IMG/VR virus record: IMGVR_UViG_3300037258_000301
Coordinates: 87,625 to 151,624 of that record
From: a virus
Reading direction: 5' to 3' (one strand)
Length of the DNA stretch: 64,000 nt
Under the pieces are notes generated by a model that saw nothing but the letters and a program-made list of their open reading frames with translations, did no database searches and was not told the DNA's origin. Position numbers and translations under genes: made by a program. This document shows, piece after piece, positions 26,644-63,432 of this stretch (its first letter is position 1; every line of letters starts with the position of its first letter).

Positions 26644-29600
26644 GTGCATACTCTCATCGAGTCCTACAGCCCCTCCGCGACCGTCACCATCGCGGATCAA
26701 ACCTTCCCCGAGCGGTGTCTGCTCGAAGACGAGGACGGCCAACGGCTGATGCTCGTCCGCGACACCATCAAGGTCGCCGACTACACTCACGCCGTTTCTC
26801 ATGGCGCCGGCATGATCGTGCGCACCGAGCCCCGCCTTGCGTTCGTACTCAATGAGACGTTCAGCGAGAGCGTCCATCCCGATACGGGCGATGACACCTA
26901 CTTCCTCGACTCCCGATACTGGACGGCGCACGAGAACTTGCCGACCTTCTTTGAGGCATTCCAGGCCCGCTATGCCCCAAAATCCGAAAACTCGAACTTC
27001 GTTCACCTCCATGCACACTCGGAGTACAGCCCACTGGATGGCCTCAGTACTCCCGAGGAGATGGTCAACGCGGCCGTCCGCATGGGGCAGAAGGCCATGG
27101 CCATTACTGATCATGGAACTTGTGCAGGCCAGCCCGCGTTCCAGATCGCCTGTGACAAGGGTGGCATCAAGCCCATCCTGGGTATCGAGGCGTACTTCGT
27201 CGACGACCGGTCCGTACGCGAGAATCGCTACGACTACTGGCACCTGATCTTGTTGGCCCAGGATCAGGAAGGACTGCGCAACCTGTGGGCGATGTCCACC
27301 GAGAGCTTCCGGGACGGCTACTACGACCGCAAGCCTCGCTTGGACTGGGAGACCCTGGAACGCTACGCCGAGGGCGTCCTGTGTTCCACGGCGTGCCTGC
27401 GAGGCCCGGTGGTTGACCCATACCTCAAGGGCGACACTGAGCGCGCGGTGAGCAACCTGGGGCGTCTGAAGGCCATCTTCGGTGACCGGCTCTACGCCGA
27501 GATCCACGCCAACCAGATCCCCGATCAGATCAAGGCCAACCGCTGGCTCACCGAGACCGCCCGCACCTACGACGTACCTCTGGTCGCCGTGTGCGATTCG
27601 CACTACCCCACGTCAGCTGACGCTGACGCCCATCGTGTCTGGCTGTCGATCACCACGAACAAGGACGTCACTGACGATTCCAGTCTGTTTCAGGGGCAGC
27701 AGGACTACTCCCTGCGGGATGAGGTTGATGTCCGGGTGGCCCTGAGCTACCTCGCCCCTGACGAGGTCGACGAAGCGGTAGCCAACACCTCGGTTATCGC
27801 TGAGCGGTGCACCGCCCGTATCGAGAAGCGCCTGCACATGCCGGTCTACTCGCGTCGCAGTGCCGAGTACCCCGATCCGGTAGCTCGTGACAAGGAGCGC
27901 CTGTTCGAGCTGTGTATGCAACGGTGGGAGGAGCGCACCACCGGCAAGACCAAGAGTCAGGACGTCTACCTGGCTCGGTTCGAGCGCGAGTTCAACCTCA
28001 TCGTGGAGAAGGGGTTCCCGGGCTACTTCTTGATCGTGTGGGACATCATCTCCCACGCGAAGCGCAATCGAGTCATGGTCAGTCCCGGCCGTGGCTCAGG
28101 TGGTGGATGCCTCTTGGCCTACCTATTGGGCATCACTGAACTGGATTCCGTCGAAGACGATATTCTGTTCGAACGCTTCATGACCAAAGGCCGTACCGAG
28201 CTGCCCGACTTCGACCTGGACTTCCCCTCCAGCAAGAAGCAGTTCATGTTCGACTACATCGCTGGTCGGTGGGGCCGAGACAATATGGCCATTGTCGGGA
28301 CTCACATGCGATTGAAGAACAAGAGCGTCTTCAAGGACGTCTCGCGCGCGCTGAAGTCGCAGCTGCCTGAGGGCTACTACCTCGATATCGAGAACATCTG
28401 CAAGATCGTCGACAACGCCGAGGCAGACACCGCCGGCCTGGGCCTGTCCTACGAGCAACTCTTCGCCAAGGTGGGCGAGGAGCTGGAACCCTATCGTGAG
28501 AAGTACCCCGAGGTCTTCCGCTGGGCCGACTTGCTCAACCACCGGCTGAAGACTTACGGCACCCATCCGGCCGGCATCGTCATCGACACTGAAGCGCCGC
28601 TGACCGAGAACCTGCCGTTGCGGGCCGGCGACAACGGGATGGTCACCCAGTTCGCCCTGGAGGCTCTGGAGTCCCTGGGTTACGTCAAGTTCGACCTGCT
28701 CAACCTGCGCAACCTCGACACCCTCCAGATCTGTTGTGATCTGATCAAGGAACACACCGGGCGCGACATCGACCCCTACTCCTTCACCAGGGAAGAGCTG
28801 TCCGACCCGATGGTGTTCGAGCGCATCGGGGCGGGCTGGACGCTGGGCATGTTCCAGATCAACACCCACCAGGGCACGCGCCTATGTACGCGGTACAAGC
28901 CGCAAACGCTCGTCGAGCTGGCACACGTACTCACCCTCGTTCGGCCGGGTCCTTCCCGCTCAGGACTGACTGACCTCTACCTGCGGCGCCGAGAGACCGG
29001 TGAGGAGATCACCTATCCCGACGAGCGGCTGCGCTCCATCCTGGGCCACACCGAGGGCATCATGCTGTTCCAGGAACAGCTCATGCAGATCTGCCTGGTG
29101 ATCGCCAACTACACCGACGTGGAAGCGGACAAGGTCCGCAAGATCCTCGGCAAGAAGAAGGTCGAGCTGGCCAAAGAGGAAGGTCGGAAGTTCATTGCGG
29201 CAGCTGTCGACAATGACACCGACGAGAAGGTAGCCATCCAGCTATGGGAGCAGATGGAGGAGTTCGCCAAGTACTCCTTTGGCTACGCCCACGCAATGGG
29301 CTATGGCACCTTCACCTATTGGACCGGCTGGCTGATGTGCCATTACCCGCTGTACATGTTGTGTGCCGCGCTCTCCTCAGTCAAGGCGGAAGAGATTCCC
29401 ACTTTCGTGGAAGAGGCGCGACGCATGGGGTATGCCGTCCTGCCTCCGGACATCAATCTGTCCCGGCGAGGCTTCACCGTGGATCCGGCCAACATGGCCG
29501 TCCGATATGGCCTGGAGTCCGTAGATGGTGTCGGCCCGGTTGCGGTGGATGCGCTTCTGGCGGCGCAGCCCTTCGCTGACTGGGAGGACTTCGTCGAGCG

Positions 29601-30309
29601 GAAGACCTCCAAGTGCAACTCCGGGCACGTCGCCGTCCTCAACAAGATCGGTGCGTTCGAGTCCATCACCGGGCACCGGCGCTGGCTGGAGCTGAAGCTG
29701 GAGTTGGAGGCCGTCCCCTCTTCGGGTGCCTGCGTGAACCACTCCGAGGACCTCGACGAGCACGAACTGCCCTGCTCGTTCGACTGGAGTTCACTGCCCC
29801 CGGCGCTGGGCAAGACCGGCAAGTTGCTCGCGAAGCAGCCTGGCCCTCCGAAGAAGTGTTCGCGCGCCTGCAAGCAGTTCCAAGCCCGACAGCCCGAACC
29901 CATCGACCTGGTGGCGCCTTACACCGCCGAGGACATTCGCCGGATCGAGGACGACGTGCTCGGTGTGTTCCTCTCCTCGACCCCGTTCGACCGATTGGAC
30001 CCTGCTGACCGCGAAGAGTGTCTCACCGCCGAGGAGGTACTCACCGCCGAGCCAGGCCGCTACCTGGTGGCCGCGATCATCAAGAAGATCAAGAACCACT
30101 GGGACAGCTCCGGTTCGGCGATGTGCTTCCTGGAGGTGGCCACCGAGCGAGGCCAACTGCCGGTGACGGTGTTCGGCTCCGCCTACGCGGAGATCCGCGA
30201 TCAACTCGTCCGGGGCTCTCTGTGCCTGCTGCTGGTCAAGCACGACAGCCGAGGTCAGATCCTGGACGAGATCATCAACCTGGACATGATGGAGAGCACT
30301 GATGCCTAA
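26644..30309 (+). CDS. dnaE: DNA polymerase III alpha subunit (DnaE-like)
   Basis: A 1221-residue C-family replicative polymerase. The PHP domain starts around residue 119 (FVHLHAHSEYSPLDG, then AITDHGTCAGQ) and keeps its metal ligands. The polymerase core has VSPGRGSGGGCLLAYLLG and the catalytic PDFDLDFPSSKK; GTHPAGIVID and HVLTLVRPGPSRSG belong to the palm and fingers. A C-terminal OB-like region (YLVAAIIKKIKNHW...VTVFGSAYAE) is present. About 118 residues precede the PHP domain and match nothing I know. It starts at a GTG at 26644 after a 99-bp gap and overlaps recA by eight bases. Confidence 0.93.
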   Translation: MHTLIESYSPSATVTIADQTFPERCLLEDEDGQRLMLVRDTIKVADYTHAVSHGAGMIVRTEPRLAFVLNETFSESVHPDTGDDTYFLDSRYWTAHENLPTFFEAFQARYAPKSENSNFVHLHAHSEYSPLDGLSTPEEMVNAAVRMGQKAMAITDHGTCAGQPAFQIACDKGGIKPILGIEAYFVDDRSVRENRYDYWHLILLAQDQEGLRNLWAMSTESFRDGYYDRKPRLDWETLERYAEGVLCSTACLRGPVVDPYLKGDTERAVSNLGRLKAIFGDRLYAEIHANQIPDQIKANRWLTETARTYDVPLVAVCDSHYPTSADADAHRVWLSITTNKDVTDDSSLFQGQQDYSLRDEVDVRVALSYLAPDEVDEAVANTSVIAERCTARIEKRLHMPVYSRRSAEYPDPVARDKERLFELCMQRWEERTTGKTKSQDVYLARFEREFNLIVEKGFPGYFLIVWDIISHAKRNRVMVSPGRGSGGGCLLAYLLGITELDSVEDDILFERFMTKGRTELPDFDLDFPSSKKQFMFDYIAGRWGRDNMAIVGTHMRLKNKSVFKDVSRALKSQLPEGYYLDIENICKIVDNAEADTAGLGLSYEQLFAKVGEELEPYREKYPEVFRWADLLNHRLKTYGTHPAGIVIDTEAPLTENLPLRAGDNGMVTQFALEALESLGYVKFDLLNLRNLDTLQICCDLIKEHTGRDIDPYSFTREELSDPMVFERIGAGWTLGMFQINTHQGTRLCTRYKPQTLVELAHVLTLVRPGPSRSGLTDLYLRRRETGEEITYPDERLRSILGHTEGIMLFQEQLMQICLVIANYTDVEADKVRKILGKKKVELAKEEGRKFIAAAVDNDTDEKVAIQLWEQMEEFAKYSFGYAHAMGYGTFTYWTGWLMCHYPLYMLCAALSSVKAEEIPTFVEEARRMGYAVLPPDINLSRRGFTVDPANMAVRYGLESVDGVGPVAVDALLAAQPFADWEDFVERKTSKCNSGHVAVLNKIGAFESITGHRRWLELKLELEAVPSSGACVNHSEDLDEHELPCSFDWSSLPPALGKTGKLLAKQPGPPKKCSRACKQFQARQPEPIDLVAPYTAEDIRRIEDDVLGVFLSSTPFDRLDPADREECLTAEEVLTAEPGRYLVAAIIKKIKNHWDSSGSAMCFLEVATERGQLPVTVFGSAYAEIRDQLVRGSLCLLLVKHDSRGQILDEIINLDMMESTDA

Positions 30310-36505: not shown

Positions 36506-38476
36506 ATGAGCCTGCTACTTCCTACTGACTTCACGGCATTCACCGGCGTCGACATCCCCGACCCGGTGACTTTCGTCGTGGGAGAACACTGGCTGAACCG
36601 GCCGATGCTCTATCCCCGCCAGGCCACCGTGGTCAAGCTGGTGTTTCTGCGTACGGACTTACTCACCGACTATGACCACCAGGTCATCGACGAGTGGGAG
36701 GAGTCCTTCCGGCGTACGGGCAACCGAGGCATCGTTCCGGACATCCGACAGCGGGCCGACCAGCTCCGGGAGATGGGCTACCAGCACTTCCGTGAGGTGC
36801 TGCTCGTTCTCGGACGTCGAGCCGGTAAAGGCTATCTCTGCGCCCTGCTCATGGCCTACGTCATCTGGCAGTACATGGCCCTGGGTGATCCGCAGGGCTA
36901 CTACGGCATCGACCGGGACAAGCAACTCGCCGCGTTCCTCTACGCCGGCAAGAAGCAGCAGGCACGCGTCAACCTCTGGCAAGACCTCGTTCACATCATC
37001 CAGGGCAGCGAGTGTTTCCAGCCCTATATCTCGCGCTCCCAGGGCGAGTCTCTGACTATCTACGCACCCTACGACCTGGTGCGAATGAACAAGCTGGCCC
37101 ATCGAGGATTCCAGACCACGATGGATCAGGCGACGTTCCTCATCGAGCCCAAAGAAGCCACGATGATGTCCGGTCGTGGACCGGCTTCCTGCATCCAGGG
37201 CTACGACGAGATGGCGCACATGGTCACCGCCGGGGGTGCGTCCCGGTCAGCCGAGGAAGTATGGAACGCGGCTACTCCGTCATTGGACCAGTTCCGCAAG
37301 GATGCCTTCATCGTGGAGCCGTCTTCACCCTGGCAGATGATTGGTCAGTTCTATCAGAACTGGCTCAACTCGTTGCTCCTCGATGAGGACGGCGTGCCCG
37401 CGTATCCGAACATCTTCATGCTTCAGCTGGAGTCGTGGGACATCTATCAGGACTGGGAGTTGGCCCATGTACTACCACTGTTTCCGCACGACTTCGAAGG
37501 AGACCTGAAGGAGTACCAGGGGAATCCTCATCCGAAGCTGGAGAAGCTCAAGGGCGCCGTGCAGACGTACGACTCCGAGATGCAGAAGCTGGAGATGGCC
37601 AACCCCGAAACCTTCGCTGTAGAGCGTCGCTCTCATTGGCAGTCGGTTGTTGATGCCTACCTCGACCCGAAGAAGATCGAGGCGATGTTCAACCCCGCAT
37701 TGGAGATGAAGACCGAAGGTACCCTCAGCATGTTCTACAAAGGACATGCTGACCCGTCGACCGTCAACGCCAACTACGGCGTAGTCATTGGGCACCCAGA
37801 GACGCGGGACGGCATCATCCACGCCGTCATCGATCATGTGCACTTCTGGCGCCCCAGCGACTTTCCCGACAACATTATCGATTACATCATGGTCGATGAG
37901 TCACTCTGGAAACTCATCTATGGATTCAAGTGTGATGAGTTCACGTTCGACCAATACAACTCGGCCGGTTCGATTCAGCGTCTCCAACAACATGTGCGCG
38001 AGTCGCAAGTCCCCAAGCGCATGCAGATCTACGAACTGACGGCCACCGCCGCCCATAACTGGGAGCGGGCCGAGAACTTCAAGGTGGCGCTCAACCAGGG
38101 GTGGATCGAGTGTCCGCCGCATGAGCAACTTCAGCTTGAGCTGAAGTTTCTCCAGCGCAAGGACACCGCAACCACCCATAGAGTGGACAAGCAGGACACG
38201 GGACCCGTAACAACCAAAGATATTGCTGACTGCATCATGGAGGTGGTCTGGACGCTGCTCGGTGACCAGGTGCATTCCTACACCCACGGCGCCCTGAGCA
38301 ATTTCCAGCTGCAAGTGGGCCTTCAGGGTGGCATCAATCCGCATGCCCGGGAGATGAGTGCCGCCGACAGCCACACCTTTGACCAGCTCGGAGGACTGTC
38401 CGGCCGGCAACGCAACGCGGTCATGCGGGGTGGGGGCCTTAACGCCGCTCGCAACGCCTATCGTCGCCGGTCATGA
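36506..38476 (+). CDS. Terminase large subunit
   Basis: A 656-residue packaging motor ATPase and nuclease. Walker A is EVLLVLGRRAGKGYL (around 105-119), the GRRxGK variant usual in phage terminases. AGKKQQARVNLWQDLVHII continues the ATPase core. CIQGYDEMAHMVTAGG supplies the Walker B Asp-Glu and the coupling region. The C-terminal nuclease has acidic positions in GVVIGHPETRDGIIHAVIDH, DYIMVDESLWKLI and TKDIADCIMEVVW. The usual portal gene does not follow, so head genes must lie elsewhere. Confidence 0.88.
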   Translation: MSLLLPTDFTAFTGVDIPDPVTFVVGEHWLNRPMLYPRQATVVKLVFLRTDLLTDYDHQVIDEWEESFRRTGNRGIVPDIRQRADQLREMGYQHFREVLLVLGRRAGKGYLCALLMAYVIWQYMALGDPQGYYGIDRDKQLAAFLYAGKKQQARVNLWQDLVHIIQGSECFQPYISRSQGESLTIYAPYDLVRMNKLAHRGFQTTMDQATFLIEPKEATMMSGRGPASCIQGYDEMAHMVTAGGASRSAEEVWNAATPSLDQFRKDAFIVEPSSPWQMIGQFYQNWLNSLLLDEDGVPAYPNIFMLQLESWDIYQDWELAHVLPLFPHDFEGDLKEYQGNPHPKLEKLKGAVQTYDSEMQKLEMANPETFAVERRSHWQSVVDAYLDPKKIEAMFNPALEMKTEGTLSMFYKGHADPSTVNANYGVVIGHPETRDGIIHAVIDHVHFWRPSDFPDNIIDYIMVDESLWKLIYGFKCDEFTFDQYNSAGSIQRLQQHVRESQVPKRMQIYELTATAAHNWERAENFKVALNQGWIECPPHEQLQLELKFLQRKDTATTHRVDKQDTGPVTTKDIADCIMEVVWTLLGDQVHSYTHGALSNFQLQVGLQGGINPHAREMSAADSHTFDQLGGLSGRQRNAVMRGGGLNAARNAYRRRS

Positions 38477-38513: not shown

Positions 38514-38999
38514 ATGACTACCCACAGTCCACCCACCCCGCTGGCTGACTACGCCTACGTGCCGGTCGCCCACTATCTGTCCCAGCCACTGCGCATCCAT
38601 GTGCTGGGCTCTCACGGCCCTGATCACTCCGACGTCCTGGTATATCACCCGGACGCACCTCCGGAGACAAAGATGCTGGCCAACGTCCTCATCACTGACG
38701 AGTGGTTCGCCCGTCCCGGGCACGCCATGTGGCCCGGATATCAGGGGGAGCGCAGCTGGGCCCAGATCGCTGAGCAGACCTACCAGCAGGTGCAAGAGGA
38801 ACGCGATCTGGCTCGACGCCTGACTGACCTCGGCATCTCTCGTCGGCTTCGTCATTATGCTGGCGTGGGTGGCACCTCCCACGAGGCCGGCGAGGCCGAT
38901 ACCCAGCTGACCTTCAGCCATGACGAACTGGACTACCTCCTGACCCTGGCCGAACGCGGTAAGGAGGGAGGCACCTCGGCGACTCAGGAGAGCACATGA
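38514..38999 (+). CDS. Hypothetical protein, probably leaderless (161 aa)
   Basis: The protein begins TTHSPPTPLADYAYVPVAHY and has a beta-rich N-terminal half (LRIHVLGSHGPDHSDVLVYH), then helices (WAQIAEQTYQQVQEERDLAR) and an acidic C-terminus. No motif is recognised. It follows the terminase and precedes two unknown large proteins, so it may belong to packaging or head morphogenesis. It has its own promoter, whose expected start point coincides with this ATG. Confidence 0.55.
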   Translation: MTTHSPPTPLADYAYVPVAHYLSQPLRIHVLGSHGPDHSDVLVYHPDAPPETKMLANVLITDEWFARPGHAMWPGYQGERSWAQIAEQTYQQVQEERDLARRLTDLGISRRLRHYAGVGGTSHEAGEADTQLTFSHDELDYLLTLAERGKEGGTSATQEST

Positions 39000-39973
39000 A
39001 CCACCTTCGGCAAGCATGGGCAGCCAAGACTGCCGCACACCGCTTTCAGCACGTATGGCTCCCCGAGAACCCCGATGAGGCGCATGATCTCCTCCAGGGC
39101 CTCGCTGGGGGCCATCTCGCCCATCTGCGGGTGGTCGGTGAGCAGGCCGCTCCATACGACAAGGAGCGCCTGCACGATCTGATCAACAACGGTGGCTTCT
39201 CTCACCACCCAGGTCACGGCGCGGCCCCCTCGACTGGCTACATGGCCAGCTACGAACTCTCCTCGCCGAGCCAGGCCGCCGTGCACGACATGTCCACGCT
39301 GACGCCCGAGCACATCGCGGAGCATCGTTCGGCCATCGGTGAGCACCTGGCCAAGCCAGACAGCTACCAGGGCGGCTGGCTCGACCGAGGCGAGAACAAG
39401 GTATACCTGGATGCCTCCCGCCACTTCCACGACGAGGGGAAGGTCCGGGACTTCTCCCTGAAGAACAAGCAGCTCGCCTACTACGACCTCGGCAAGGGCA
39501 ACGAGTACTACCTCGATCCGCATCGCGACGAGCTGGCCCACACCGACCCCTCGGCGCACCACGAGAAGTACTCCGGCATCACCAAGAAGTTCGGTCCCGG
39601 CACCCCGCTGGAGTACGAGAGCTACCGACACCTCTACGAGGGTGGTGGCGAGAAGACCGCGTCCCTTCAGTACGCGGTGACCGAGCAGCCGCCGGCCAGT
39701 GGGTTGCCCTACCTGATCCGCGTGGCCAGGGGCAACCAGGTCATCGCGCACATCGGGGTGCGTCCGGATGGCACCTGGCGCTACCTTCGGGCCGAGGCCG
39801 GCCGGACCGCCACCCAGTCCTCGGTCGACGAGATCCGGGACGGAATCAACGCCATCGTGGGCGCCTTGTTCGAGGGCACCCAGGCTCGCCCCGAGTGGCT
39901 CGACGGCCGGCCGATCGGCCCGTGGCTCAACGACCACGTGGACGAGATCGAGCGCCGGAAGCGGCAGCCGTGA
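38996..39973 (+). CDS. Hypothetical protein of the terminase region (325 aa)
   Basis: Overlaps the previous gene by ATGA and the next by GTGA. The protein is rich in His, Asp and Gly (FSHHPGHGAAPSTGYMASYE; YYLDPHRDELAHTDPSAHHE) with a Tyr-rich middle (DLGKGNEYYLDPH) and an ordered C-terminal part (GLPYLIRVARGNQVIAHIGV; RYLRAEAGR). The many His could bind metal. It resembles no domain I can name with confidence. Co-translated with the ParB/nucleotidyltransferase protein, so the two may act as a pair. Confidence 0.5.
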   Translation: MNHLRQAWAAKTAAHRFQHVWLPENPDEAHDLLQGLAGGHLAHLRVVGEQAAPYDKERLHDLINNGGFSHHPGHGAAPSTGYMASYELSSPSQAAVHDMSTLTPEHIAEHRSAIGEHLAKPDSYQGGWLDRGENKVYLDASRHFHDEGKVRDFSLKNKQLAYYDLGKGNEYYLDPHRDELAHTDPSAHHEKYSGITKKFGPGTPLEYESYRHLYEGGGEKTASLQYAVTEQPPASGLPYLIRVARGNQVIAHIGVRPDGTWRYLRAEAGRTATQSSVDEIRDGINAIVGALFEGTQARPEWLDGRPIGPWLNDHVDEIERRKRQP

Positions 39974-41631
39974 CGTGGCCCCCGAGTGCTACTCATGAGG
40001 AGCTGAAGGATCTGATTCCTGGCTTCGATCAGGATCGTCATGTGGGGCACGAGCATGAGGTGTACGACTACCACCCCGCCTATCCCATCAAGGGCGGCAT
40101 AGTCGGGCTACACAAGGGCAAGTCGCCCTGGGGTTTCTACTCCGAAGACAGTCGTGCTCGTGATGACGACCTCGATCGTTGGAGTGATCTCCAGGACCGC
40201 ATCAAGAGAACTCCCGGTGACGTACACCCTCTCGTTATTTCCGGTGGGCACCTCCTCGACGGATTCCATCGCGCAAGCTTGGCTCTCAATGCCCGGAAAA
40301 ATACCTTCCATGCCTACGTTGCTCGCTCGGAGAGCGCACAGAAGGAAGGTCGATCTCAAGGGTCACGCGACTCTGCCACGAAGAACTTTGGTGAACTGGC
40401 CCCGTACGAGCAGGCTGCCGCTGCCAAGTATCACGAGCAGATGATTGAGGAGGGTAACGCCGAGCCCAATACGATGCCGCGCGATTACCGCTATGAGATG
40501 CACCAGGAACCCATGAAGCAATTCATCAAGCGGTACATGGATGCCGACGACGAGTTCAGGGCCGAGTACCCCCATGGTTCGGCTGACTTCCAAGCGCACC
40601 ACGACGAGATGCTGCGGAATCATCCGATTCCGAGCCATTCGGCCAAGAATCGCTGGCCCCTCATCGTGCGCGACACCAACCCGAACTACGTCGATGACGG
40701 CTACCACCGGATGCACTCCTACATCCGCGATGGTGCCACCTCTCTGCCAACCATGCGCATGTGGCCGAAGGACGAAGCGCTCGTCAAGCAGGCAGCCACG
40801 GTGCTGCCTCATGAGCGCCTCTTCGGACCCACCTACGGGCTCGACCACCGGCTGTTCGAGGGGGATGTGCTGCGGCCGGAGATCCGGCGGGACATCGTCG
40901 AGAAGTTCAGCGGCTTCTGTTCGGCACACGACTACCCGAACTGGCACGACTGGGCCAAGATCGTCTTCTTCGGCAGTGAAGCGTCAACATGGACGTCACC
41001 CACCCTGGTAGGAAATAACGACTTCGATCTGAGTATCGGAGTCGAGTATGAGCGCTTCCGGGCGGCCGTACCGACCATGCGGGGGCTTGCCGCCGATCTC
41101 ATCGCCAGCGGTCTCACCGAGCAGATGCACGCCGAGCTGAACGATCCCGCCACCTACTTCGAGCTGGCCGACGGCAGCCGGGTGGGTCCGATGGATCAAA
41201 CCTGGTTCGCCAACCTGCTGGGGTGGGACATCCGCCAGATCCGCCCCTACGCCGCTTACGACGTGGTGGCCAATCACTGGATCGTCAAGCCTCCTGATTT
41301 GCCCGACTGGGACATCAACCAGTTCCCGCAGGGCCACGGCCTGGTCCGGGAGATCCAGGGCATCATCGAGATGGCGCGAGGGATCCTGGCTATGCCCGAG
41401 CCCTACCGTACCCAGCAGGGTGCTCAACTCTGGGAGTACGTGCATGCCAATCGCTCGGGAGCGTTCGGGCCTCAGGGCGAGGGCTGGTGGGATGTCCGTA
41501 ATGTGGTAGAAAAGGCACTAGATCAAAAAGGTCTGATTCAGCCCCTCTTCGAGTGCCACCAGCGGGCCGTCGAGACCCCACACAGTCTCGATGCGCCGGC
41601 AGGCTGGTCCAACGACCCCAGCACCGTCTGA
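39970..41631 (+). CDS. ParB-like, ParB-like, nucleotidyltransferase multidomain protein (553 aa)
   Basis: The GTG at 39970 overlaps the previous stop. Residues 55-100 give a ParB/Srx-like core, HPLVISGGHLLDGFHRASLA (G...DGxHR). A second copy, RWPLIVRDTNPNYVDDGYHR with HSYIRDGATSLPTMRMWP, lies near residues 225-265. Residues 325-365 read IVFFGSEASTWTSP...NDFDLSIGVEY, a nucleotidyltransferase GS...DFD signature with catalytic Asp pair. The C-terminal part (about 400-530) is helical. Such a fusion suggests nucleotide- or nucleic-acid-dependent modification, perhaps of phage or host DNA or proteins; the exact reaction is not shown. Confidence 0.65.
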   Translation: MTWPPSATHEELKDLIPGFDQDRHVGHEHEVYDYHPAYPIKGGIVGLHKGKSPWGFYSEDSRARDDDLDRWSDLQDRIKRTPGDVHPLVISGGHLLDGFHRASLALNARKNTFHAYVARSESAQKEGRSQGSRDSATKNFGELAPYEQAAAAKYHEQMIEEGNAEPNTMPRDYRYEMHQEPMKQFIKRYMDADDEFRAEYPHGSADFQAHHDEMLRNHPIPSHSAKNRWPLIVRDTNPNYVDDGYHRMHSYIRDGATSLPTMRMWPKDEALVKQAATVLPHERLFGPTYGLDHRLFEGDVLRPEIRRDIVEKFSGFCSAHDYPNWHDWAKIVFFGSEASTWTSPTLVGNNDFDLSIGVEYERFRAAVPTMRGLAADLIASGLTEQMHAELNDPATYFELADGSRVGPMDQTWFANLLGWDIRQIRPYAAYDVVANHWIVKPPDLPDWDINQFPQGHGLVREIQGIIEMARGILAMPEPYRTQQGAQLWEYVHANRSGAFGPQGEGWWDVRNVVEKALDQKGLIQPLFECHQRAVETPHSLDAPAGWSNDPSTV

Positions 41632-44629: not shown

Positions 44630-45661
44630 ATGAAGAAGTACGTCGTCGCCGTCATGGCGATCGTCGCCATGCTGCTGGCGGGTGGTTACGTCGCCGCCAA
44701 TGCCGGCCCCAGTGACGTGCCCAGTTCGCCTGCCGGCAACTACCACAGTCTCGCCACCCCGCAGCGGCTCCTGGACACCCGCACTCCGGCTGCCCAGACG
44801 CTCAGCAGTGGTGCCTCCCTGAACGTCACGGTCGCGGGCAAGGTGGGAGTCCCCGTCGATGCCACTGCGGTGGTCCTGAACGTCACCGTCGCCGACTCCA
44901 CCATCGGCGGCTATCTGTCCGTGGTGCCCTCCGGTGTGGATCCGACCGGCACCTCCACGGTGAACTGGCCCAGCGCCGGAGCCTTGCTCTCCAACCAGGC
45001 CACCGTGGACCTGCCGGCCAACGGCAACGTCACGGTGTACAACCGGGCCGGCGACACCGATGTCGTTCTGGACGTGGTTGGCTACTTCACCCCTGCCGAA
45101 GCTGCCGGTACGGGTCCTGCGGGTCCTGCGGGGCCACAAGGAGCCAAGGGTGATACCGGCCCGGCCGGACCCCAGGGGGCGCCAGCCGTCAACACGTTCG
45201 GCGTAGGCCAGCTCTGGATCAACACGAAGTTCGGATTGACCCAGTGGGCCCAGTACGAAACCACCGAGGCCGGTGCGCCGGGTGGCGATCAGGCCAGTGG
45301 TGAGTTCCGGTTCACCTGCACCCTGACGGATGGCTGTGACCTGTCGCTGAAGGCGTACTCCACCGGCGACGGCTACACCGTGTACCCGCGCATCGTGCTG
45401 GAGAAGGAAGACAACACCACCGGTGCGAAGCTGACCTGCGAATATGCGGACGGCACCAACAACGAGGGTGGCACGCAGGATCTGACCGATACGGCCGCCA
45501 CGGTGCTGATGGGCATCGGATCCACCGCTGACTGTGGGAGCACCGTGCAGACCGGCACCCCCGCCGACGGCGTGGATCACATCAACGTCCCCGGTTCGAC
45601 GGGACAGGGCATCCACTACGACGCGAACATCACGCTGACCTTCGCGAAAGCTGCTGCCTGA
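44630..45661 (+). CDS. Secreted collagen-like protein with actinobacterial N-terminal domain (343 aa)
   Basis: A clear signal peptide (MKKYVVAVMAIVAMLLAGG..AANA) directs export. Residues 38-155 form a beta-rich domain starting YHSLATPQRLLDTRTP and ending VVLDVVGYFTP, very like repeated domains of secreted Streptomyces-type proteins. A short collagen-like Gly-X-Y tract (GPAGPAGPQGAKGDTGPAGP) follows at about 160-185, then a C-terminal beta domain with three Cys. It has its own promoter and terminator, the mark of a phage-encoded lysogeny or host-surface gene (moron). It could coat the host cell, modify adsorption or join the virion. Confidence 0.75.
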   Translation: MKKYVVAVMAIVAMLLAGGYVAANAGPSDVPSSPAGNYHSLATPQRLLDTRTPAAQTLSSGASLNVTVAGKVGVPVDATAVVLNVTVADSTIGGYLSVVPSGVDPTGTSTVNWPSAGALLSNQATVDLPANGNVTVYNRAGDTDVVLDVVGYFTPAEAAGTGPAGPAGPQGAKGDTGPAGPQGAPAVNTFGVGQLWINTKFGLTQWAQYETTEAGAPGGDQASGEFRFTCTLTDGCDLSLKAYSTGDGYTVYPRIVLEKEDNTTGAKLTCEYADGTNNEGGTQDLTDTAATVLMGIGSTADCGSTVQTGTPADGVDHINVPGSTGQGIHYDANITLTFAKAAA

Positions 45662-49652: not shown

Positions 49653-49948
49653 CCCTGACCATCCTGGCTCTCGTCGTGCTGCTCCTCGGTAGCTGCGGGT
49701 ATTGGACCCCCGATACCCTGCGTCACATGAAGATCTCCCTTGCCCACCTGGGCACCCGCGTCACCGCCCTGTTTCGGCGTCTCTCGGCGACCACTGACGA
49801 AGCCCCCTGTGCCTGCCTGGCCTGCCACCACTTCGTAGGTGTCGACCTGTCAGTGCGCTCCAAGCACAAACTGCTCCCGCGCCTGGCTGGTGAGGCCGCT
49901 GAAGGGCTGGCCGCTGAGATCGAAGAGTTCCTGGGGGCTGCCACGTGA
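49631..49948 (+). CDS. Membrane-anchored protein (105 aa)
   Basis: The first 22 residues (LLSLALTLTILALVVLLLGS) are a signal anchor, then CGYW. The adjoining Cys could be lipidated but the spacing is short. A later Cys-rich piece (EAPCACLACHHFVGVD) may bind metal. It overlaps the previous gene by 22 bases and the next by GTGA. Confidence 0.5.
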   Translation: MLLSLALTLTILALVVLLLGSCGYWTPDTLRHMKISLAHLGTRVTALFRRLSATTDEAPCACLACHHFVGVDLSVRSKHKLLPRLAGEAAEGLAAEIEEFLGAAT

Positions 49949-50139
49949 GCAAGCGCAAAAACAACGAGATCATGAAGTTGTATGGAGTCGACATTCCGGC
50001 GTGGAGAGATCCCGTGGATGAAGAAGAGCACCCGCTGCCTGACGTGCTCACCACGCTCCTGCGCCTGCATGCTGCCCTGACCAATCAGGTGTGCGCCCTG
50101 CCGGCGCTCAACCGGGCTGTGGAGGCCGTCAGTGACTAA
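49945..50139 (+). CDS. Hypothetical protein (64 aa)
   Basis: Starts in a GTGA overlap. A basic N-terminus (SKRKNNEIMKLYGVDIPAW) and a helical C-terminal half with one Cys (HAALTNQVCALPALNR). Similar small basic-then-acidic proteins fill phage arms; no function. Confidence 0.45.
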   Translation: MSKRKNNEIMKLYGVDIPAWRDPVDEEEHPLPDVLTTLLRLHAALTNQVCALPALNRAVEAVSD

Positions 50140-50401
50140 CGAGCCGCCTGCACTTCGTCCCATCGATTCCGCTGACCTCGTTGACCTCATTGACGTCCTT
50201 GCCGCCATGAAGGTGGACATGGACCAAGCAGAGCACGAGGCGCAACGCAGCTTCCTGCTCGATGTGCTCGCCGCTGACCCTGACTGTCCGGTCTGCGGGC
50301 GTAAGGGCATCCCTGTCGCCGATGACCGAGGTATCTCCTACCACCACGACGGACGCGCCTTCCACTGTCGTGTCACCCCGAAGCTTCTGGAGCGCCCATG
50401 A
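50132..50401 (+). CDS. Hypothetical zinc-binding protein (89 aa)
   Basis: A helical N-terminal part (PIDSADLVDLIDVLAAMKVD) is followed by DPDCPVCGRKGIPVADDRGI and AFHCRVT. The CxxC plus a distant Cys/His suggests a zinc knuckle. GTG start eight bases before the preceding stop; ends in ATGA overlap. Confidence 0.5.
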   Translation: MTNEPPALRPIDSADLVDLIDVLAAMKVDMDQAEHEAQRSFLLDVLAADPDCPVCGRKGIPVADDRGISYHHDGRAFHCRVTPKLLERP

Positions 50402-50679
50402 GTATTTTGTACCGCCCCTACACGATCACCATGCATCTTTCAGGGATGGATAGCGTCACCACCCAGACCGCCGACGACAGCGCTCAGGCCGCCAAGGCCG
50501 TTGCCCTGATCCAGCAGGCCATGTCTCGGTCAGGCAATGCGATGTTGGCGAACTACATGAAGAACATGAACGTCATCATCCGAGCCGAGAACATCATCAT
50601 GGTGATATGCGAGCCCGCGCTCACCCTCGCCGATGTCGAGGCCGCTGAGAGGGAGTTGGCGCATGAGCTACGTGACTGA
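50398..50679 (+). CDS. Hypothetical protein (93 aa)
   Basis: Starts in an ATGA overlap. A beta segment (LYRPYTITMHLSGMDSVTTQ) leads into a long helix (SAQAAKAVALIQQAMSRSGN) and MKNMNVIIRAENIIMVICEP. The N-terminal segment, helix and acidic end fit an oligomeric phage accessory protein. Unrecognised. Confidence 0.45.
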   Translation: MSILYRPYTITMHLSGMDSVTTQTADDSAQAAKAVALIQQAMSRSGNAMLANYMKNMNVIIRAENIIMVICEPALTLADVEAAERELAHELRD

Positions 50680-50989
50680 TCTGACCATGATCTTCCCGAA
50701 CAGGGAGGACGCCAAGCGGTTTGAAGCCCTCTACCGCGACGAGACCAGTTATGGTCTCGTACCGTTGGCGTCTGAAGGCAGCAACACGCCCGGCAATTAC
50801 GTCTATACCTTCGGATTGAACTACATCACTCGTTTCCCGGAGCTGATGGAAGCCCTGGAGCGTGGGCCCTGGGCACGCGGCACCGTCCTTTACATCTGTC
50901 ACGCGGGAAGCGATCCGGAGATCACCGTCTTCGGCCCGGTCGTCGGTATGCCTGAACCGAACGGCGGTGAGAATGACCTATCCGTCTGA
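50663..50989 (+). CDS. Hypothetical protein (108 aa)
   Basis: Starts 17 bases before the end of the preceding gene. A helix (NREDAKRFEALYRDETSYGL) and strands (GNYVYTFGLNYITRFPEL, RGTVLYICHAGSDPEITVFG) alternate, an alpha/beta layout. No catalytic motif is seen. It is followed by a small gap before an HTH gene. Confidence 0.45.
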   Translation: MSYVTDLTMIFPNREDAKRFEALYRDETSYGLVPLASEGSNTPGNYVYTFGLNYITRFPELMEALERGPWARGTVLYICHAGSDPEITVFGPVVGMPEPNGGENDLSV

Positions 50990-51003
50990 GTAAGCTGACA
51001 TGC

Positions 51004-51237
51004 GTGTCCCCCCTCCCCGACGTGTCAGCCGCGCACTGCCTTGACGAGGTCGAAGCTAGCCACGACGAGCTGCTGCTGGCCCGCAGGAGCGTCGAGAGCG
51101 CCGAGTATGCCCTTGTCAAGGCAATCACCCTTGCGGTCAACCATCACTCCTCCTGGGCAGCGATAGCGACCGCCATGGGCATCCGCCGGCAGACCGCCTG
51201 GGATTGGTATCAGCGTCACCACAACCCCACATCTTGA
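51004..51237 (+). CDS. Small helix-turn-helix DNA-binding protein (77 aa)
   Basis: The C-terminal half, HSSWAAIATAMGIRRQTAWD, is a clear helix-turn-helix (WAxIAxAMGIxRQTAWxxY) of the kind found in small phage regulators; the N-terminal half is an acidic helix. It probably binds DNA and may regulate neighbouring genes. Start GTG at 51004; no ribosome site, but TAAGCT lies seven bases upstream like a -10, so the mRNA may be leaderless. Confidence 0.6.
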   Translation: MSPLPDVSAAHCLDEVEASHDELLLARRSVESAEYALVKAITLAVNHHSSWAAIATAMGIRRQTAWDWYQRHHNPTS

Positions 51238-51251
51238 GGAGCGTCACCACC

Positions 51252-51554
51252 ATGAAGATCTTCGACGAGGACGACTTCGTCCAGCAGATCAGCAATGCCG
51301 GCGAAGCGTTCGCCAACGACCTCAACGACGAGATAGAGGGCAAGTTCGGCTTCTCCGTCGGCGACTACGACGAGGACGTGGACGCCTACTCGGTCACCGC
51401 GTCCTGGGAGCCGTGTCTGGACGAGGACGAAGAGGTCGAAGGTCGGGATGGCGACTACGGGCCTGTGCAGAAGCAGCGCTTCTGGCTGGTACCGATGTCC
51501 CCCGACCAGGTCAACAAGCCGTCGGTCGACGTCTCTGAGGGTGCTCAGGTATGA
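51252..51554 (+). CDS. Highly acidic hypothetical protein (100 aa)
   Basis: GAGGAG lies before the ATG. The sequence is very acidic (KIFDEDDFVQQISNAGEAFA; DEIEGKFGFSVGDYDEDVDA; DEDEEVEGRDGDYG), a feature of DNA-mimic and anti-restriction proteins, but that idea is speculation. Ends in an ATGA overlap with a small gene. Confidence 0.5.
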   Translation: MKIFDEDDFVQQISNAGEAFANDLNDEIEGKFGFSVGDYDEDVDAYSVTASWEPCLDEDEEVEGRDGDYGPVQKQRFWLVPMSPDQVNKPSVDVSEGAQV

Positions 51555-51709
51555 AGATCACCCTGACCATCCAGGACGACGTGGACAACAAGAACCGGGC
51601 CGCCTGGTTTGTCGAAGAGACGCGCGCGAGTGCCACGTTCTCGTTCATGTCCGAGGACGGCGACGATGTCGAGGTACAGATCGACGACGTGAGCATCCAG
51701 TGGTGGTAG
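51551..51709 (+). CDS. Small acidic protein (52 aa)
   Basis: The ATG overlaps the previous stop by four bases. The product reads KITLTIQDDVDNKNRAAWFV, then an acidic SEDGDDVEVQIDDVSIQWW end. It resembles the acidic neighbour in composition, so the pair may act together. Unrecognised. Confidence 0.45.
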   Translation: MKITLTIQDDVDNKNRAAWFVEETRASATFSFMSEDGDDVEVQIDDVSIQWW

Positions 51710-51717
51710 GAGATGCC

Positions 51718-51764
51718 TTGGTCGGCTCGGGGTTCACCGGTAGTCTCCGGGGTGTCACCAACCA
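51718..51764 (+). promoter_or_regulatory. Repeated phage promoter with GTCACCAACCA
   Basis: TTGGTC (51718-51723), a 17-bp spacer starting GGCTCGGGG, TAGTCT (51741-51746), and GTCACCAACC from 51754. CGGAGG and the GTG at 51786 follow. Confidence 0.7.
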
Positions 51765-51785
51765 CCGCACACCCCGGAGGCCACC

Positions 51786-52037
51786 GTGCCGATGCTCACC
51801 CTCTCGCGCTATGCCCACCACGACGACGACGAGCATGATGCTCGCCTGAACGGCTTCGAGGCTGGCTGGTCTCACGCCAACTACGTCGAGGCGTATGGCT
51901 GGAGTGCGGACTCCCAGATGCCTGACCGCTACCGCAGGGTGTCCGGTGTGTGGCGCGACGCCTACCAGGAGGGCAAGGACGAGTTCGAGGCTCAGACCGA
52001 GAACGAGGAGATCTACGGGCACGACTGGCGTGGCTGA
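51786..52037 (+). CDS. Hypothetical protein (83 aa)
   Basis: The GTG at 51786 has GGAGG five bases upstream. The sequence is His/Asp-rich (RYAHHDDDEHDARLNGFEAG) and contains a pattern like the RGYxxGW or FEAGWSHANYVEAY of small phage proteins, ending acidic. Unknown function. Confidence 0.5.
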   Translation: MPMLTLSRYAHHDDDEHDARLNGFEAGWSHANYVEAYGWSADSQMPDRYRRVSGVWRDAYQEGKDEFEAQTENEEIYGHDWRG

Positions 52038-52039
52038 GT

Positions 52040-52222
52040 GTGTCCCCTCGCAAGAAGCTCGCCGGCCGCCCACGGTGCACTCCGTGTGGCGGCCTTGCGA
52101 TATTCCCTGACCGGATCGCCGCCGAGTTCCAGGGTGTCTTCTGGGGCCTCCGGGCCTACCCGTGCCCGCACCGTCGCAATCGCTGGCACCTGACCAGCGT
52201 CCCCGAGGAGGACCAGCAGTGA
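52040..52222 (+). CDS. Zinc-ribbon-like small basic protein (60 aa)
   Basis: The GTG at 52040 starts one to two bases after the previous stop. The sequence SPRKKLAGRPRCTPCGGLAI and YPCPHRRNRWHLTS carries a CxxC plus Cys/His, a zinc-ribbon layout with a basic N-terminus, likely contacting nucleic acid. Overlaps the next gene by GTGA. Confidence 0.5.
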   Translation: MSPRKKLAGRPRCTPCGGLAIFPDRIAAEFQGVFWGLRAYPCPHRRNRWHLTSVPEEDQQ

Positions 52223-52500
52223 CGATCCGACAGAGCCTTCAGAACAGCCCGATGCGAGCGAGTCTGCGTGAGCGAGACGCCATCCTGCGCATGATCGTGG
52301 GCGCGATCGAACCCATCACCGATCGACGAGTGTTCGACCCGATCATCGACCTGATCCAGAACCACCCTGGCCACCCGTTCCTCGAAGACGACGGGGTGGC
52401 GCTCATCCTGCGCTGCCAGAACCCCGACTGCTACCCCACCACGTGGCCCTGTCGTCCCCTGCGGGACTTGGCCGGCCGTTTGCGCGTGAGGTTGCCGTGA
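52219..52500 (+). CDS. Hypothetical protein (93 aa)
   Basis: Starts in a GTGA overlap. Helical N-terminal part (RASLRERDAILRMIVGAIEP), then VFDPIIDLIQNHPGHPFLED and a Cys pair (LRCQNPDCYPTTWPCRPLRD). It might bind a metal. No family recognised. Confidence 0.45.
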   Translation: MTIRQSLQNSPMRASLRERDAILRMIVGAIEPITDRRVFDPIIDLIQNHPGHPFLEDDGVALILRCQNPDCYPTTWPCRPLRDLAGRLRVRLP

Positions 52501-52536
52501 CAAGCAGTGACACCCTCGAACGAAAGGGTTGATCCC

Positions 52537-52839
52537 GTGACCGCAGCGCTGACCCATTCACCGTTCTGGCGTCGTCCCGAGCGCGATGCACACCGCGAAG
52601 CACATCCACGCACCCTCATGCCGCGCGAGGAGGCCCTGGAGCGACTGGAGGGCCTCCGGCAGGCCGTCCGGTTCTTCGTACCCTGCCAGTACCGGGCCGG
52701 GTATACAGACGTGATCGGCGCTCCCTGTTCGCACTGCGGTCACACCGACTTTGCGCATGGAGGAGTTCACCAGCCCGACGTGCCGGCCTTCTGCATGGCC
52801 TGCGCCCTGCTGATCACCTGGCTGGAGATGAACTCATGA
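52537..52839 (+). CDS. Zinc-finger-like protein (100 aa)
   Basis: The GTG at 52537 lies nine bases after AAGGG; an in-frame GTG at 52507 lacks a site. A basic N-terminus (HSPFWRRPERDAHREAHPRT) is followed by GAPCSHCGHTDFAHGG and FCMACALLI, a CxxC/CxxC ribbon. Likely nucleic-acid or protein contact; function unknown. Confidence 0.5.
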   Translation: MTAALTHSPFWRRPERDAHREAHPRTLMPREEALERLEGLRQAVRFFVPCQYRAGYTDVIGAPCSHCGHTDFAHGGVHQPDVPAFCMACALLITWLEMNS

Positions 52840-52934
52840 TCAGTACTGATAAGCAGGACGCACAGTACGCTCGGGGCTCTGACCAGCGTCAGGCCACCGA
52901 GACGGGTCTGACCTCACCCGAGGAGCGACCATGA
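52836..52934 (+). CDS. Very small protein (32 aa)
   Basis: An ATGA overlap joins it to the previous gene, and its stop overlaps the next gene's ATG. It reads ISTDKQDAQYARGSDQRQAT with an acidic end; composition is polar. Coupling on both sides is the main support. Confidence 0.4.
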   Translation: MISTDKQDAQYARGSDQRQATETGLTSPEERP

Positions 52935-53722
52935 CGGATGTCGAGGGCCGGACTCTGACCTTGCATCTTCCCACCGGCCCCACGCTGGTGTTCGACACCG
53001 ACGAGCGCACGCTGACCGTGACCTCCCGCACCCCCGTTTCCTCGCAGGAGATCCGCGTCAACCTCACCGACAGCGCGCTGCGGTCGCTGACCAGTGCACT
53101 GACCGAGGGTGTGCGTTTGGCGGATGAGCATCGTGACCAGCTGCGGTGGGCCATGCAGGAGAAGCGAGCCGATGAGCACGCAACCAGGTACGAGAGGGAG
53201 GCCTTCATGGTCTTCACCCACGCTCGGCCGCTCGGCGACGACATCCCCCAGCGGATGGAGACGATCATTCACCGGCGCACCTGTCTGGCCGCTCCTGCCA
53301 TCTCTGAAGCCGTCACCGCGCAGGACGTGAGTGACTTGGTCCGTCGGCATGCTGGCACGGTCACGCATCTGGTCGAGTTCCATATCGGCTGCTTCATGAA
53401 CCCTGATGAAGGCACCACCGTCACCGTGTTCGACGCCGGTATGACGTCGTCGGCCCTGCTCCATGAACACCTGGCGCGCATAGAGCAAGAGCACATTGCC
53501 CAAGTACGTGCCGCCAGGGGACGCAAGATCACCAGCGTGCCCAACGTCAACGGCCTGGATGACTCTCTCGACGAGACCGTGGTCGGGCACGACGGTAAGT
53601 ACCTGCCCACTACCCCCGACGGCAAGAGGTCGAAGGTGCAAGCCTCGGCGTTCGACACTCTCGGCGACGATGTGCCTGAAGCGATGGACGCCCGGCTCGA
53701 CGACTCCGTCACGCTGTCGTAA
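52931..53722 (+). CDS. Hypothetical protein (263 aa)
   Basis: The largest protein of this stretch. The N-terminal part is beta-rich (GRTLTLHLPTGPTLVFDTDE), then helices (DEHATRYEREAFMVFTHARP) and a Cys (HIGCFMNPD). The C-terminus is polar and probably disordered. No motif recognised. It ends just before a promoter of the repeated family. Confidence 0.5.
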   Translation: MTDVEGRTLTLHLPTGPTLVFDTDERTLTVTSRTPVSSQEIRVNLTDSALRSLTSALTEGVRLADEHRDQLRWAMQEKRADEHATRYEREAFMVFTHARPLGDDIPQRMETIIHRRTCLAAPAISEAVTAQDVSDLVRRHAGTVTHLVEFHIGCFMNPDEGTTVTVFDAGMTSSALLHEHLARIEQEHIAQVRAARGRKITSVPNVNGLDDSLDETVVGHDGKYLPTTPDGKRSKVQASAFDTLGDDVPEAMDARLDDSVTLS

Positions 53723-53740
53723 CCCCCGCCTTCCTACCCC

Positions 53741-53787
53741 TTGGTGGTGTCAGGGCTTCGCGATAGTCTCTGAGGTGTCACCAGCTC
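53741..53787 (+). promoter_or_regulatory. Repeated phage promoter with GTCACCAGCTC
   Basis: TTGGTG (53741-53746), 17-bp spacer starting GTGTCAGGG, TAGTCT (53764-53769), then GTCACCAGCTC from 53777. It is the best match to the consensus and drives the operon starting at 53807. Confidence 0.8.
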
Positions 53788-53806
53788 TACTTCCTCGGGA
53801 GTCATC

Positions 53807-53995
53807 ATGACCATTGCTCAACGTCGCGGCATCGCCCACTACGCCGGCAGGGACATCCCCGCTCCCCGCGCGAACACCGTGGCCTTCCTCGCCCGGCTCG
53901 ATTACATCCGCAAGAACCGCACCACCGGCGCATACGCACTGACGACCCTGGGCCGTGAGCTGTCCCTGCTCGCCGGCTTCTTCGAGGAAATCTGA
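53807..53995 (+). CDS. Small protein, possible winged-helix DNA-binding fold (62 aa)
   Basis: Residues 20-62 (NTVAFLARLDYIRKNRTTGA then YALTTLGRELSLLAGFFEEI) look like the third helix and wing of a small winged-helix protein (T-GAYALTTLGREL). Basic N-terminus. If real it is a transcription regulator under a repeated-family promoter; the fit is suggestive only. Confidence 0.45.
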   Translation: MTIAQRRGIAHYAGRDIPAPRANTVAFLARLDYIRKNRTTGAYALTTLGRELSLLAGFFEEI

Positions 53996-53997
53996 TC

Positions 53998-54201
53998 ATG
54001 GCGACCATTCCTCGTGCTCGGCTGGTGCAGATCACTACCGCTGAACTGATCGAACAGTACAACTTCGCGATCAGTAGCCATGCGGGTCGGAACACCAATT
54101 TTTCTCCTCGACAGCAGCGGATCAACTACATCGTTGACTTGCTCTCGGCTCGTGCCGACAACGATGACGCAGCGGCCGTCCAGTGGTTTGAGGAGACGTG
54201 A
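53998..54201 (+). CDS. Hypothetical protein (67 aa)
   Basis: Starts two bases after the previous stop at a TGATCATG junction. The sequence IPRARLVQITTAELIEQYNF and SHAGRNTNFSPRQQRINYIV is helical with a basic N-terminus. Unknown function. Confidence 0.45.
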   Translation: MATIPRARLVQITTAELIEQYNFAISSHAGRNTNFSPRQQRINYIVDLLSARADNDDAAAVQWFEET

Positions 54202-54213
54202 TCATGAAAGACA

Positions 54214-54303
54214 ATGAGTCCGTGCGTGGAGGAGACCGGTTTCACTCTTGGATTCGTACCGAAAGAACTGTTCTATTCCGCCAGCAATGCGATGAAGGAC
54301 TGA
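54214..54303 (+). CDS. Possible very small protein (29 aa)
   Basis: An ATG at 54214 gives SPCVEETGFTLGFVPKELFY and then SASNAMKD before a TGA that is followed by TCATG of the next gene, the same junction as neighbouring genes. Third-position G/C is higher in this frame than in the overlapping alternative that would extend the next gene to 54204. Accept with caution. Confidence 0.35.
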   Translation: MSPCVEETGFTLGFVPKELFYSASNAMKD

Positions 54304-54305
54304 TC

Positions 54306-54632
54306 ATGAATTTCTTCGAGCACCGGTATGTCAACATCGACGTAGCGGCCAACCAGATCACCCTCGCCCCGAAGCCGGGCACGATCCGCAAGCGTGTGCT
54401 GCCGCTGGTGGTGGCCGATCCTCTCCAGTACGCCACCGCCACCCTGGACGACCCAGGCGCCGTCAAGCGCGGTTTCACCCTCACCACGGGCATGATCGGT
54501 CGCAACAAGGACAAGGGCAGCGTGTTCCTCACCGTCATGATCGGGCAACGCGCCGAGGTGGTGGAGATCCCCCGCAAGTACGGTGCGCAAGCCCGCGAGG
54601 CCGTGGCCACCATCAACGCAGTGGGAAGGTAG
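54306..54632 (+). CDS. Hypothetical beta-rich protein (108 aa)
   Basis: The ATG at 54306 follows GAAGGACTGATC. The sequence FFEHRYVNIDVAANQITLAP, VLPLVVADPLQYATATLDDP and GSVFLTVMIGQRAEVVEIPR suggests a beta barrel ending in a helix (PH- or Sm-like in outline). An in-frame ATG at 54204 with a good ribosome site would add 34 residues, so the start is not certain. Function unknown. Confidence 0.5.
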   Translation: MNFFEHRYVNIDVAANQITLAPKPGTIRKRVLPLVVADPLQYATATLDDPGAVKRGFTLTTGMIGRNKDKGSVFLTVMIGQRAEVVEIPRKYGAQAREAVATINAVGR

Positions 54633-54635
54633 ATC

Positions 54636-63425: not shown

Positions 63426-63432
63426 CCGCCAG

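What the first reader, a model, noticed from the sequence alone, without database searches (positions are those of the whole stretch)
39970..41631. Protein combining two ParB-like segments and a nucleotidyltransferase
The order ParB-like (DGFHRA), ParB-like (DDGYHRM), then GS...DFD nucleotidyltransferase, in one 553-residue protein co-translated with an unknown His-rich protein after the terminase, is unusual. ParB-fold domains can bind CTP, and the nucleotidyltransferase could use the same or another nucleotide. A role in DNA packaging, capsid modification or toxin-like NMP transfer is conceivable.
Basis: partly seen in the sequence, partly recalled or inferred. Interest (0 to 1): 0.7.

Follow-up and report, generated by a model that had tools for sequence, protein, structure and literature searches.

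The report
Modular phage effector protein after terminase
A large phage of actinobacteria carries, right after its DNA-packaging gene, a patchwork protein ending in an intact-looking nucleotide-transferring enzyme; its relatives swap the front parts freely, which suggests a mix-and-match protein carried in the virus head and injected into the host.

Summary
The ORF is real (39970-41631, 553 aa, coupled to the ORF before it, 1.5 kb after TerL). Its last ~275 residues are a Pol-beta-type nucleotidyltransferase (NTase): G335, S336, D351, D353 in 37/37 relatives, D/E409 in 36/37; confident AlphaFold model; nearest solved structures are NTases. ParB-like segment 2 is moderately supported, segment 1 rests on its DGFHR motif. 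Neither has the CTP boxes of canonical ParB. The virus is related to the Bxz1/Myrna (cluster C) myoviruses. In 11 relatives the same NTase, always within 3 kb of TerL, ends proteins with unrelated fronts (ART-, GNAT-, RelE-, zincin-, ParB-like). This is the phage 'polyvalent protein' pattern (Iyer 2017), but that catalogue has Pol-beta NTases only in conjugative elements and of another family. Module boundaries tend to carry [KRH]-[TQ]-A-[ASGV]; [KRH]TA is enriched in head-cluster proteins of six genomes, mostly not elsewhere: a candidate prohead-protease site. Best reading: a capsid-packaged, processed effector whose NTase modifies a host target. Packaging, cleavage and substrate are inferred.

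The parts
39970..41631 (+). 553-aa modular protein: ParB-like 1, ParB-like 2, nucleotidyltransferase (full ORF, GTG start)
40150..40353 (+). ParB-like segment 1 (residues ~61-128; DGFHRA at 40258-40275); motif-level assignment only, no relatives found
40354..40785 (+). ParB-like segment 2 (residues 129-272; DDGYHRM); a 60% identical copy sits inside the head-protease fusion protein of phage L059
40786..40797 (+). K273-Q-A-A276 at the ParB-2/NTase boundary, candidate processing site (inference)
   Evidence: motif enrichment
40798..41628 (+). Pol-beta-type nucleotidyltransferase domain (G335-S336 at 40972-40977, D351/D353 at 41020-41028, D409 at 41194-41196) with C-terminal helical part (H492, R495, F499, G503, G505, N511 invariant)
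38996..39973 (+). 325-aa coupled upstream protein; segment 66-238 is related to Rhodococcus phage E3 gp68 (head cluster, upstream of portal) and to an ORF at the same place in L005; KTAA at residue 11, KTAS at residue 220
36506..38476 (+). terminase large subunit (context; in all fused relatives the NTase gene starts within 3 kb downstream of TerL)

Best explanation
A phage-type polyvalent protein. It is made with the packaging genes of a Bxz1/Myrna-like actinophage, taken into the prohead, probably cut by the head maturation protease at K/R/H-[TQ]-A sites into modules (here after K-Q-A, freeing the NTase), and delivered into the next host with the DNA. There the NTase transfers a nucleoside monophosphate from an NTP to a host molecule (protein or tRNA most likely, small molecule possible). 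The ParB-like segments act as nucleotide-regulated nuclease/DNA-binding modules or as packaging modules. Shown here: modular architecture, conserved NTase active site and fold, conserved position after TerL, sharing of the ParB-2 module with a head-protease fusion protein, enrichment of the motif in head-cluster proteins. Inferred: packaging, cleavage, injection, and the NTase substrate.
For: NTase triad complete in 36/37 family members. Confident AF2 model (pLDDT 86, pTM 0.80) whose closest solved structures are Pol-beta-superfamily NTases: AAD(9), CdnC/CdnE, TUTase, CCA-adding, ANT, DrrA. Eleven fused relatives carry entirely different N-terminal modules before the same NTase. TerL lies just upstream in L005, L007, L008, L009, L011, L013, L014, L066, L067 and, by record coordinates, in L010 and L012. 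The ParB-2 module is embedded in the head-protease fusion protein of L059, followed there by K-T-A-A as the window copy is followed by K-Q-A-A. [KRH]TA[AS] is 10 observed vs 1.1 expected in head-cluster and post-terminase proteins of this genome and 4 vs 5.0 in its other 211 proteins. [KRH]TA is enriched in head clusters of Stormageddon (17 vs 3.3), E3 (8 vs 2.5), Myrna (9 vs 3.6), Skog (13 vs 3.5) and ET08 (12 vs 4.8). In fused NTase proteins the fronts hold 18 [KRH][TQ]A[ASGV] vs 3.2 expected, the NTase domain none, and 0 of 25 standalone NTases has [KRH][TQ]A before the domain. Precedent for the class: PMC5512222.
Against: No proteomics: the protein is not shown to be in any virion. The motif was noticed before it was counted in this genome; [KR]VA is also enriched in some genomes, and the Skog non-head set is also enriched (13 vs 6.0). 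Several fused relatives (L005, L007, L008, L012, L014) have no [KRH]TA or [KRH]QA right at the NTase boundary. Foldseek E-values and TM-scores to solved NTases are weak (best E 0.005, TM about 0.2). ParB-1 has no homolog. The gene is about 65 kb from the portal/MCP cluster in linear coordinates. Standalone relatives are not in a head-gene context.
Confidence: 0.6

Rival explanations
1. A host-takeover enzyme (like many phage NTases, ARTs and GNATs) made in the infected cell, not packaged. The N-terminal modules are fusion partners picked up by recombination; the [KR]TA motifs are flexible linkers.
For: Standalone NTase relatives in BRock-like Streptomyces phages sit next to the endolysin, not the head genes; no direct packaging evidence.
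Against: Position beside TerL conserved in all fused relatives; sharing of ParB-2 with a head-protease fusion protein; motif enriched in head proteins and at module boundaries.
Confidence: 0.22
2. A DNA-packaging or genome-end factor: ParB-like segments bind or nick DNA and the NTase acts on DNA ends or on terminase.
For: The gene lies 1.5 kb after TerL in the same direction; ParB-like domains can be nucleases (PMC5512222).
Against: The ParB-like segments are absent or replaced by ART/GNAT/RelE-like modules in relatives with closely similar TerL (L007, L005); the 213 Bxz1-like phage records that share TerL gave no match to this protein.
Confidence: 0.08
3. The ParB-like segments are not ParB folds at all; DGxHR occurs in unrelated spacer sequence and only the NTase is a folded domain.
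For: Leave-out profile score for ParB-2 only 6.5 bits, ParB-1 undetected; AF2 gives low confidence for most of residues 1-270, on a shallow alignment.
Against: A profile of these segments with others of the phage group finds ParB/Spo0J, Noc and SbnI as the first 13 solved-structure hits, E from 2.5e-5 (the window copies are in that profile); hhalign of ParB-2 against the other segments aligns on the motif, E 5.7e-4; ParB-2 is 58-60% conserved as a unit in L059.
Confidence: 0.25

Closest known systems
Phage-type polyvalent proteins (Iyer, Burroughs, Anand, de Souza, Aravind 2017, PMC5512222), e.g. phage P1 DdrB
   Same: Several unrelated catalytic modules in one polypeptide, ParB-like and zincin/ART/GNAT modules in the family, encoded by a portal-terminase phage next to virion/packaging genes, variable architecture.
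   Different: Pol-beta NTase as the constant C-terminal module in phages; [quoted passage not shown] This one is larger (about 275 aa with a conserved helical part) and has no Pfam match. No zincin of its own in the window protein.
Head-packaged, protease-processed proteins of large myoviruses (T4; SPN3US, motif A-X-E, PMC10052503)
   Same: A recurring short motif in head proteins and a head maturation protease in the same genome (57373-60624 of G000, phrog_18299, E 9.5e-26).
   Different: The motif here would be [KRH]-T/Q-A, not x-x-E; cleavage has not been shown in this phage group in anything I could read.
Standalone NTase of BRock/GiJojo-like Streptomyces phages (annotated 'hypothetical protein')
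   Same: Same NTase family, 26-29% identity, all catalytic residues kept.
   Different: Single protein of about 330 aa beside the endolysin gene, no modules in front.
Pol-beta NTases of known function: AAD(9)/ANT antibiotic nucleotidyltransferases, CD-NTases (CdnC/CdnE), CCA-adding enzyme, TUTase
   Same: Fold and active-site layout hG[GS]...DxD...[DE].
   Different: Only distant structural similarity (Foldseek E 0.005 at best), no sequence similarity; substrate cannot be read across.

Membership tests
Pol-beta superfamily nucleotidyltransferase | hG[GS] motif followed by [DE]x[DE] | tested here: met
   G335, S336, D351, D353 invariant in 37/37
Pol-beta superfamily nucleotidyltransferase | third acidic residue on a later strand | tested here: met
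   D/E409 in 36/37, on strand 404-414 of the model
Pol-beta superfamily nucleotidyltransferase | fold resembles solved NTases | tested here: met
   The first 22 PDB matches all belong to the superfamily, though weakly: best E 0.005, TM about 0.2
Minimal polyvalent/NTox45-type NTase of Iyer 2017 | minimal four-strand, three-helix domain in Firmicute mobile elements, usually fused to ArdC-N | tested here: not met
   About 275 aa with a conserved C-terminal helical region; actinophages; no ArdC-N match in Pfam
ParB/sulfiredoxin superfamily | strand-[DEG]G-x-[HTS]-R-helix motif with hydrophobic strands around it | tested here: inconclusive
   Both motifs present; a profile including them hits ParB structures at 2.5e-5; leave-out support weak for ParB-2, none for ParB-1
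Canonical CTP-binding ParB | GERRxRA box and ENxxR box | tested here: not met
   Neither box is in the sequence by reading
Phage-type polyvalent protein | two or more domains of unrelated activity in one polypeptide, shuffled among relatives | tested here: met
Phage-type polyvalent protein | encoded among late/virion or packaging genes of a portal-terminase phage | tested here: met
   TerL close upstream in the window and all eleven fused relatives
Phage-type polyvalent protein | packaged in the virion and injected | not testable with these tools
   Needs proteomics
Prohead-protease substrate | cleavage at the motif in mature virions | not testable with these tools
   Motif enrichment only

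The most novel reading that the evidence does not exclude
Bxz1/Myrna-like actinophages carry interchangeable effector modules next to TerL and inside their portal-proximal and head-protease proteins, separated by [KRH]-[TQ]-A-[ASG] cleavage sites of the head maturation protease. The capsid thus receives long polyproteins and cuts them into separate injected effectors, among them a new phage NTase family that nucleotidylates a host target.
Probability: 0.4. Interest if true: 0.72.

Novelty: new variant of a known kind. Interest (0 to 1): 0.52.

Why it matters
More than 200 phage records in the collection share this terminase and capsid type, and many of their large head-cluster proteins are annotated 'hypothetical'. 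If the [KR]TA motif is the head-protease site, one proteomics run would parse these proteins into mature injected modules and say which effectors each phage delivers first. The NTase is a conserved, uncharacterised family with an intact active site, found both fused and alone, and so is directly testable for what it modifies in actinobacteria.

Tried and rejected
Pfam, PHROGs and PADLOC gave no useful family for the protein. phmmer with the ParB-1 part against PDB gave nothing. hmmsearch of the NTase profile against PDB gave chance hits only. A viral-contig scan with the ParB-2 profile found only L059's record again. A scan with the 325-aa upstream protein found nothing, though L005 carries it at 47-48% identity. 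AF2 of the full protein modelled the NTase well but not most of residues 1-270, so no structural claim is made for the ParB parts. CTP-switch/partition function rejected: no CTP boxes. DNA-packaging role ranked low. An RNA element in the L012 insert was sought in Rfam: no match.

Full report
Observation. The ORF 39970-41631 is open, 553 codons, and its GTG start overlaps the TGA of the 325-aa ORF before it. Codon composition agrees with the genome; residues 1-128 have lower GC3 (0.62 against 0.77-0.79), as a recently acquired piece would. TerL is at 36506-38476. The window is positions 87625-151624 of a 151,624-bp virus record.

Which virus. The major capsid protein of the record (62709-63809) is 55-61% identical to those of Rhodococcus phage E3, Gordonia phages Stormageddon and Skog, and Mycobacterium cluster C phages such as Myrna; TerL agrees. 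The nearest relatives of the cassette in bacterial assemblies are on Streptomyces contigs of 152 and 157 kb, so a Streptomyces-like host is likely (inference).

NTase. The C-terminal part has 52 relatives in IMG/VR, 10 in GTDB genomes, all Streptomyces or Nonomuraea, and standalone versions of about 330 aa in BRock, GiJojo and pSt2308. In an alignment of 37, G335, S336, D351 and D353 are invariant and position 409 is D or E in 36. AlphaFold2 gives pLDDT 86 and pTM 0.80, with the GS turn after strand 329-334, the DxD on strand 351-358 and the third acid on strand 404-414. PDB matches are headed by NTases (AAD(9), CdnC, TUTase, CCA-adding, CdnE, ANT(6), DrrA, LinB, KNT), with weak E-values, 0.005 at best. 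BFVD gives strong matches to uncultured phage proteins, one annotated as a nucleotidyl transferase (E 5.1e-9). So it is an active-looking NTase of a family I could not find described; the substrate is unknown.

ParB-like parts. Both DG-x-HR motifs are there. A profile of these and other ParB-like segments of the same phage group finds Spo0J, ParB, Noc and SbnI first (E from 2.5e-5). Held-out support is weak for ParB-2 (6.5 bits as best domain; hhalign pairwise E 5.7e-4, probability 29%) and absent for ParB-1. The boxes that define CTP-binding ParB are missing by reading.

Modularity. Eleven relatives end in the same NTase, with unrelated fronts. By reading: L007 GNAT + Arr-like ART; L008 ParB-like + Arr-like + RelE-like; L005 ParB-like + ART-like + RelE-like + HExxH zincin (SprT-like, E 3.1e-5, just under the Pfam cut-off); L009 and L010 about 1600-1900 aa with several ART- and ParB-like segments; L066 GNAT + zinc knuckle + ART-like; L067 GNAT + zinc knuckle. 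Module names other than SprT-like are my reading of motifs, not library hits. TerL lies just upstream in L005, L007, L008, L009, L011, L013, L014, L066 and L067, and in L010 and L012 by record coordinates. The ParB-2 module recurs, 60% identical, inside the head-protease fusion protein of L059, in the place where the window's virus has a DUF7178 segment. The coupled 325-aa protein shares a segment with E3 gp68, which lies shortly before the portal gene of E3. These are the features of phage polyvalent proteins (PMC5512222). [quoted passage not shown]

A candidate processing motif. Module boundaries often read K/R/H-T/Q-A. In this genome [KRH]TA[AS] occurs 10 times in 23 head-cluster and post-terminase proteins against 1.1 expected from 500 shuffles, and 4 times against 5.0 in the other 211. 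Because the motif was seen first in these sequences, [KRH]TA was then counted in genomes not used to choose it: the head clusters of Stormageddon (17 vs 3.3), E3 (8 vs 2.5) and Myrna (9 vs 3.6), Skog (13 vs 3.5) and ET08 (12 vs 4.8). Other proteins of those genomes were not enriched, except in Skog (13 vs 6.0). Control motifs [DE]TA and [LIVM]TA are not enriched; [KR]VA is, in some. In the fused NTase proteins the fronts hold 18 [KRH][TQ]A[ASGV] against 3.2 expected, the NTase domain none, and no standalone NTase of 25 has [KRH][TQ]A before the domain. The MCP N-termini also carry a conserved R-x-A just before their conserved part (R-I-A in the window's virus; R-F-A in E3 and Myrna, R-V-A in Stormageddon; Skog has R-F-S). 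The genome encodes a head maturation protease (57373-60624, phrog_18299). The simplest reading is a prohead-protease site, comparable in kind to A-X-E of SPN3US (PMC10052503) but different in sequence. This is inference until proteomics is done.

Mechanism and likelihood. Most likely (0.6): a head-packaged, protease-processed polyvalent effector, the NTase being released after K-Q-A and nucleotidylating a host target. Rivals: a non-packaged takeover enzyme (0.22), a DNA-packaging factor (0.08); separately, the chance that the ParB-like parts are not ParB folds is about 0.25. No paper found in the library describes this combination: a five-term search gave two papers, the 2017 survey and one on BREX.

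Noticed in passing
G000 head cluster, 38701-61576 of the record (outside the window; L061-L063), and L076-L080: [KRH]TA motif enriched in head-cluster proteins of six Bxz1-like genomes and mostly not elsewhere: candidate prohead-protease site for the whole group.
   Followed up: partly
L062:11738-16684 (G000 49738-54687): A 1649-aa protein just after the portal gene with NUDIX domain and double zinc ribbon (Pfam), and GNAT-, ParB-, SWIM- and ART-like segments by reading: another polyvalent protein of the same virus.
   Followed up: partly
L063:373-3621 (G000 57373-60624): Head maturation protease fused to a DUF7178 segment and acidic spacer; in L059 the DUF7178 place is taken by the ParB-2 module of the window protein.
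   Followed up: partly
L012:4330-5000: An in-frame insertion of roughly 200-240 codons splits the NTase domain between the DxD motif and the third acid; no Rfam match. Nature unknown (intein, intron or assembly artefact).
   Followed up: partly
window 44630-45661: 343-aa protein with a short collagen-like stretch (GPAGPAGPQGAKGDTGPAGPQG), probably a fibre protein.
   Followed up: no
window 26644-30309: Phage-encoded bacterial-type DNA polymerase III alpha subunit with PHP domain (Pfam E 3.6e-62).
   Followed up: no
L066, L067: Related TerL-NTase cassettes on 152-157 kb contigs of Streptomyces assemblies, close to the virus genome size: possible whole phages carried or co-sequenced with the strains.
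   Followed up: no
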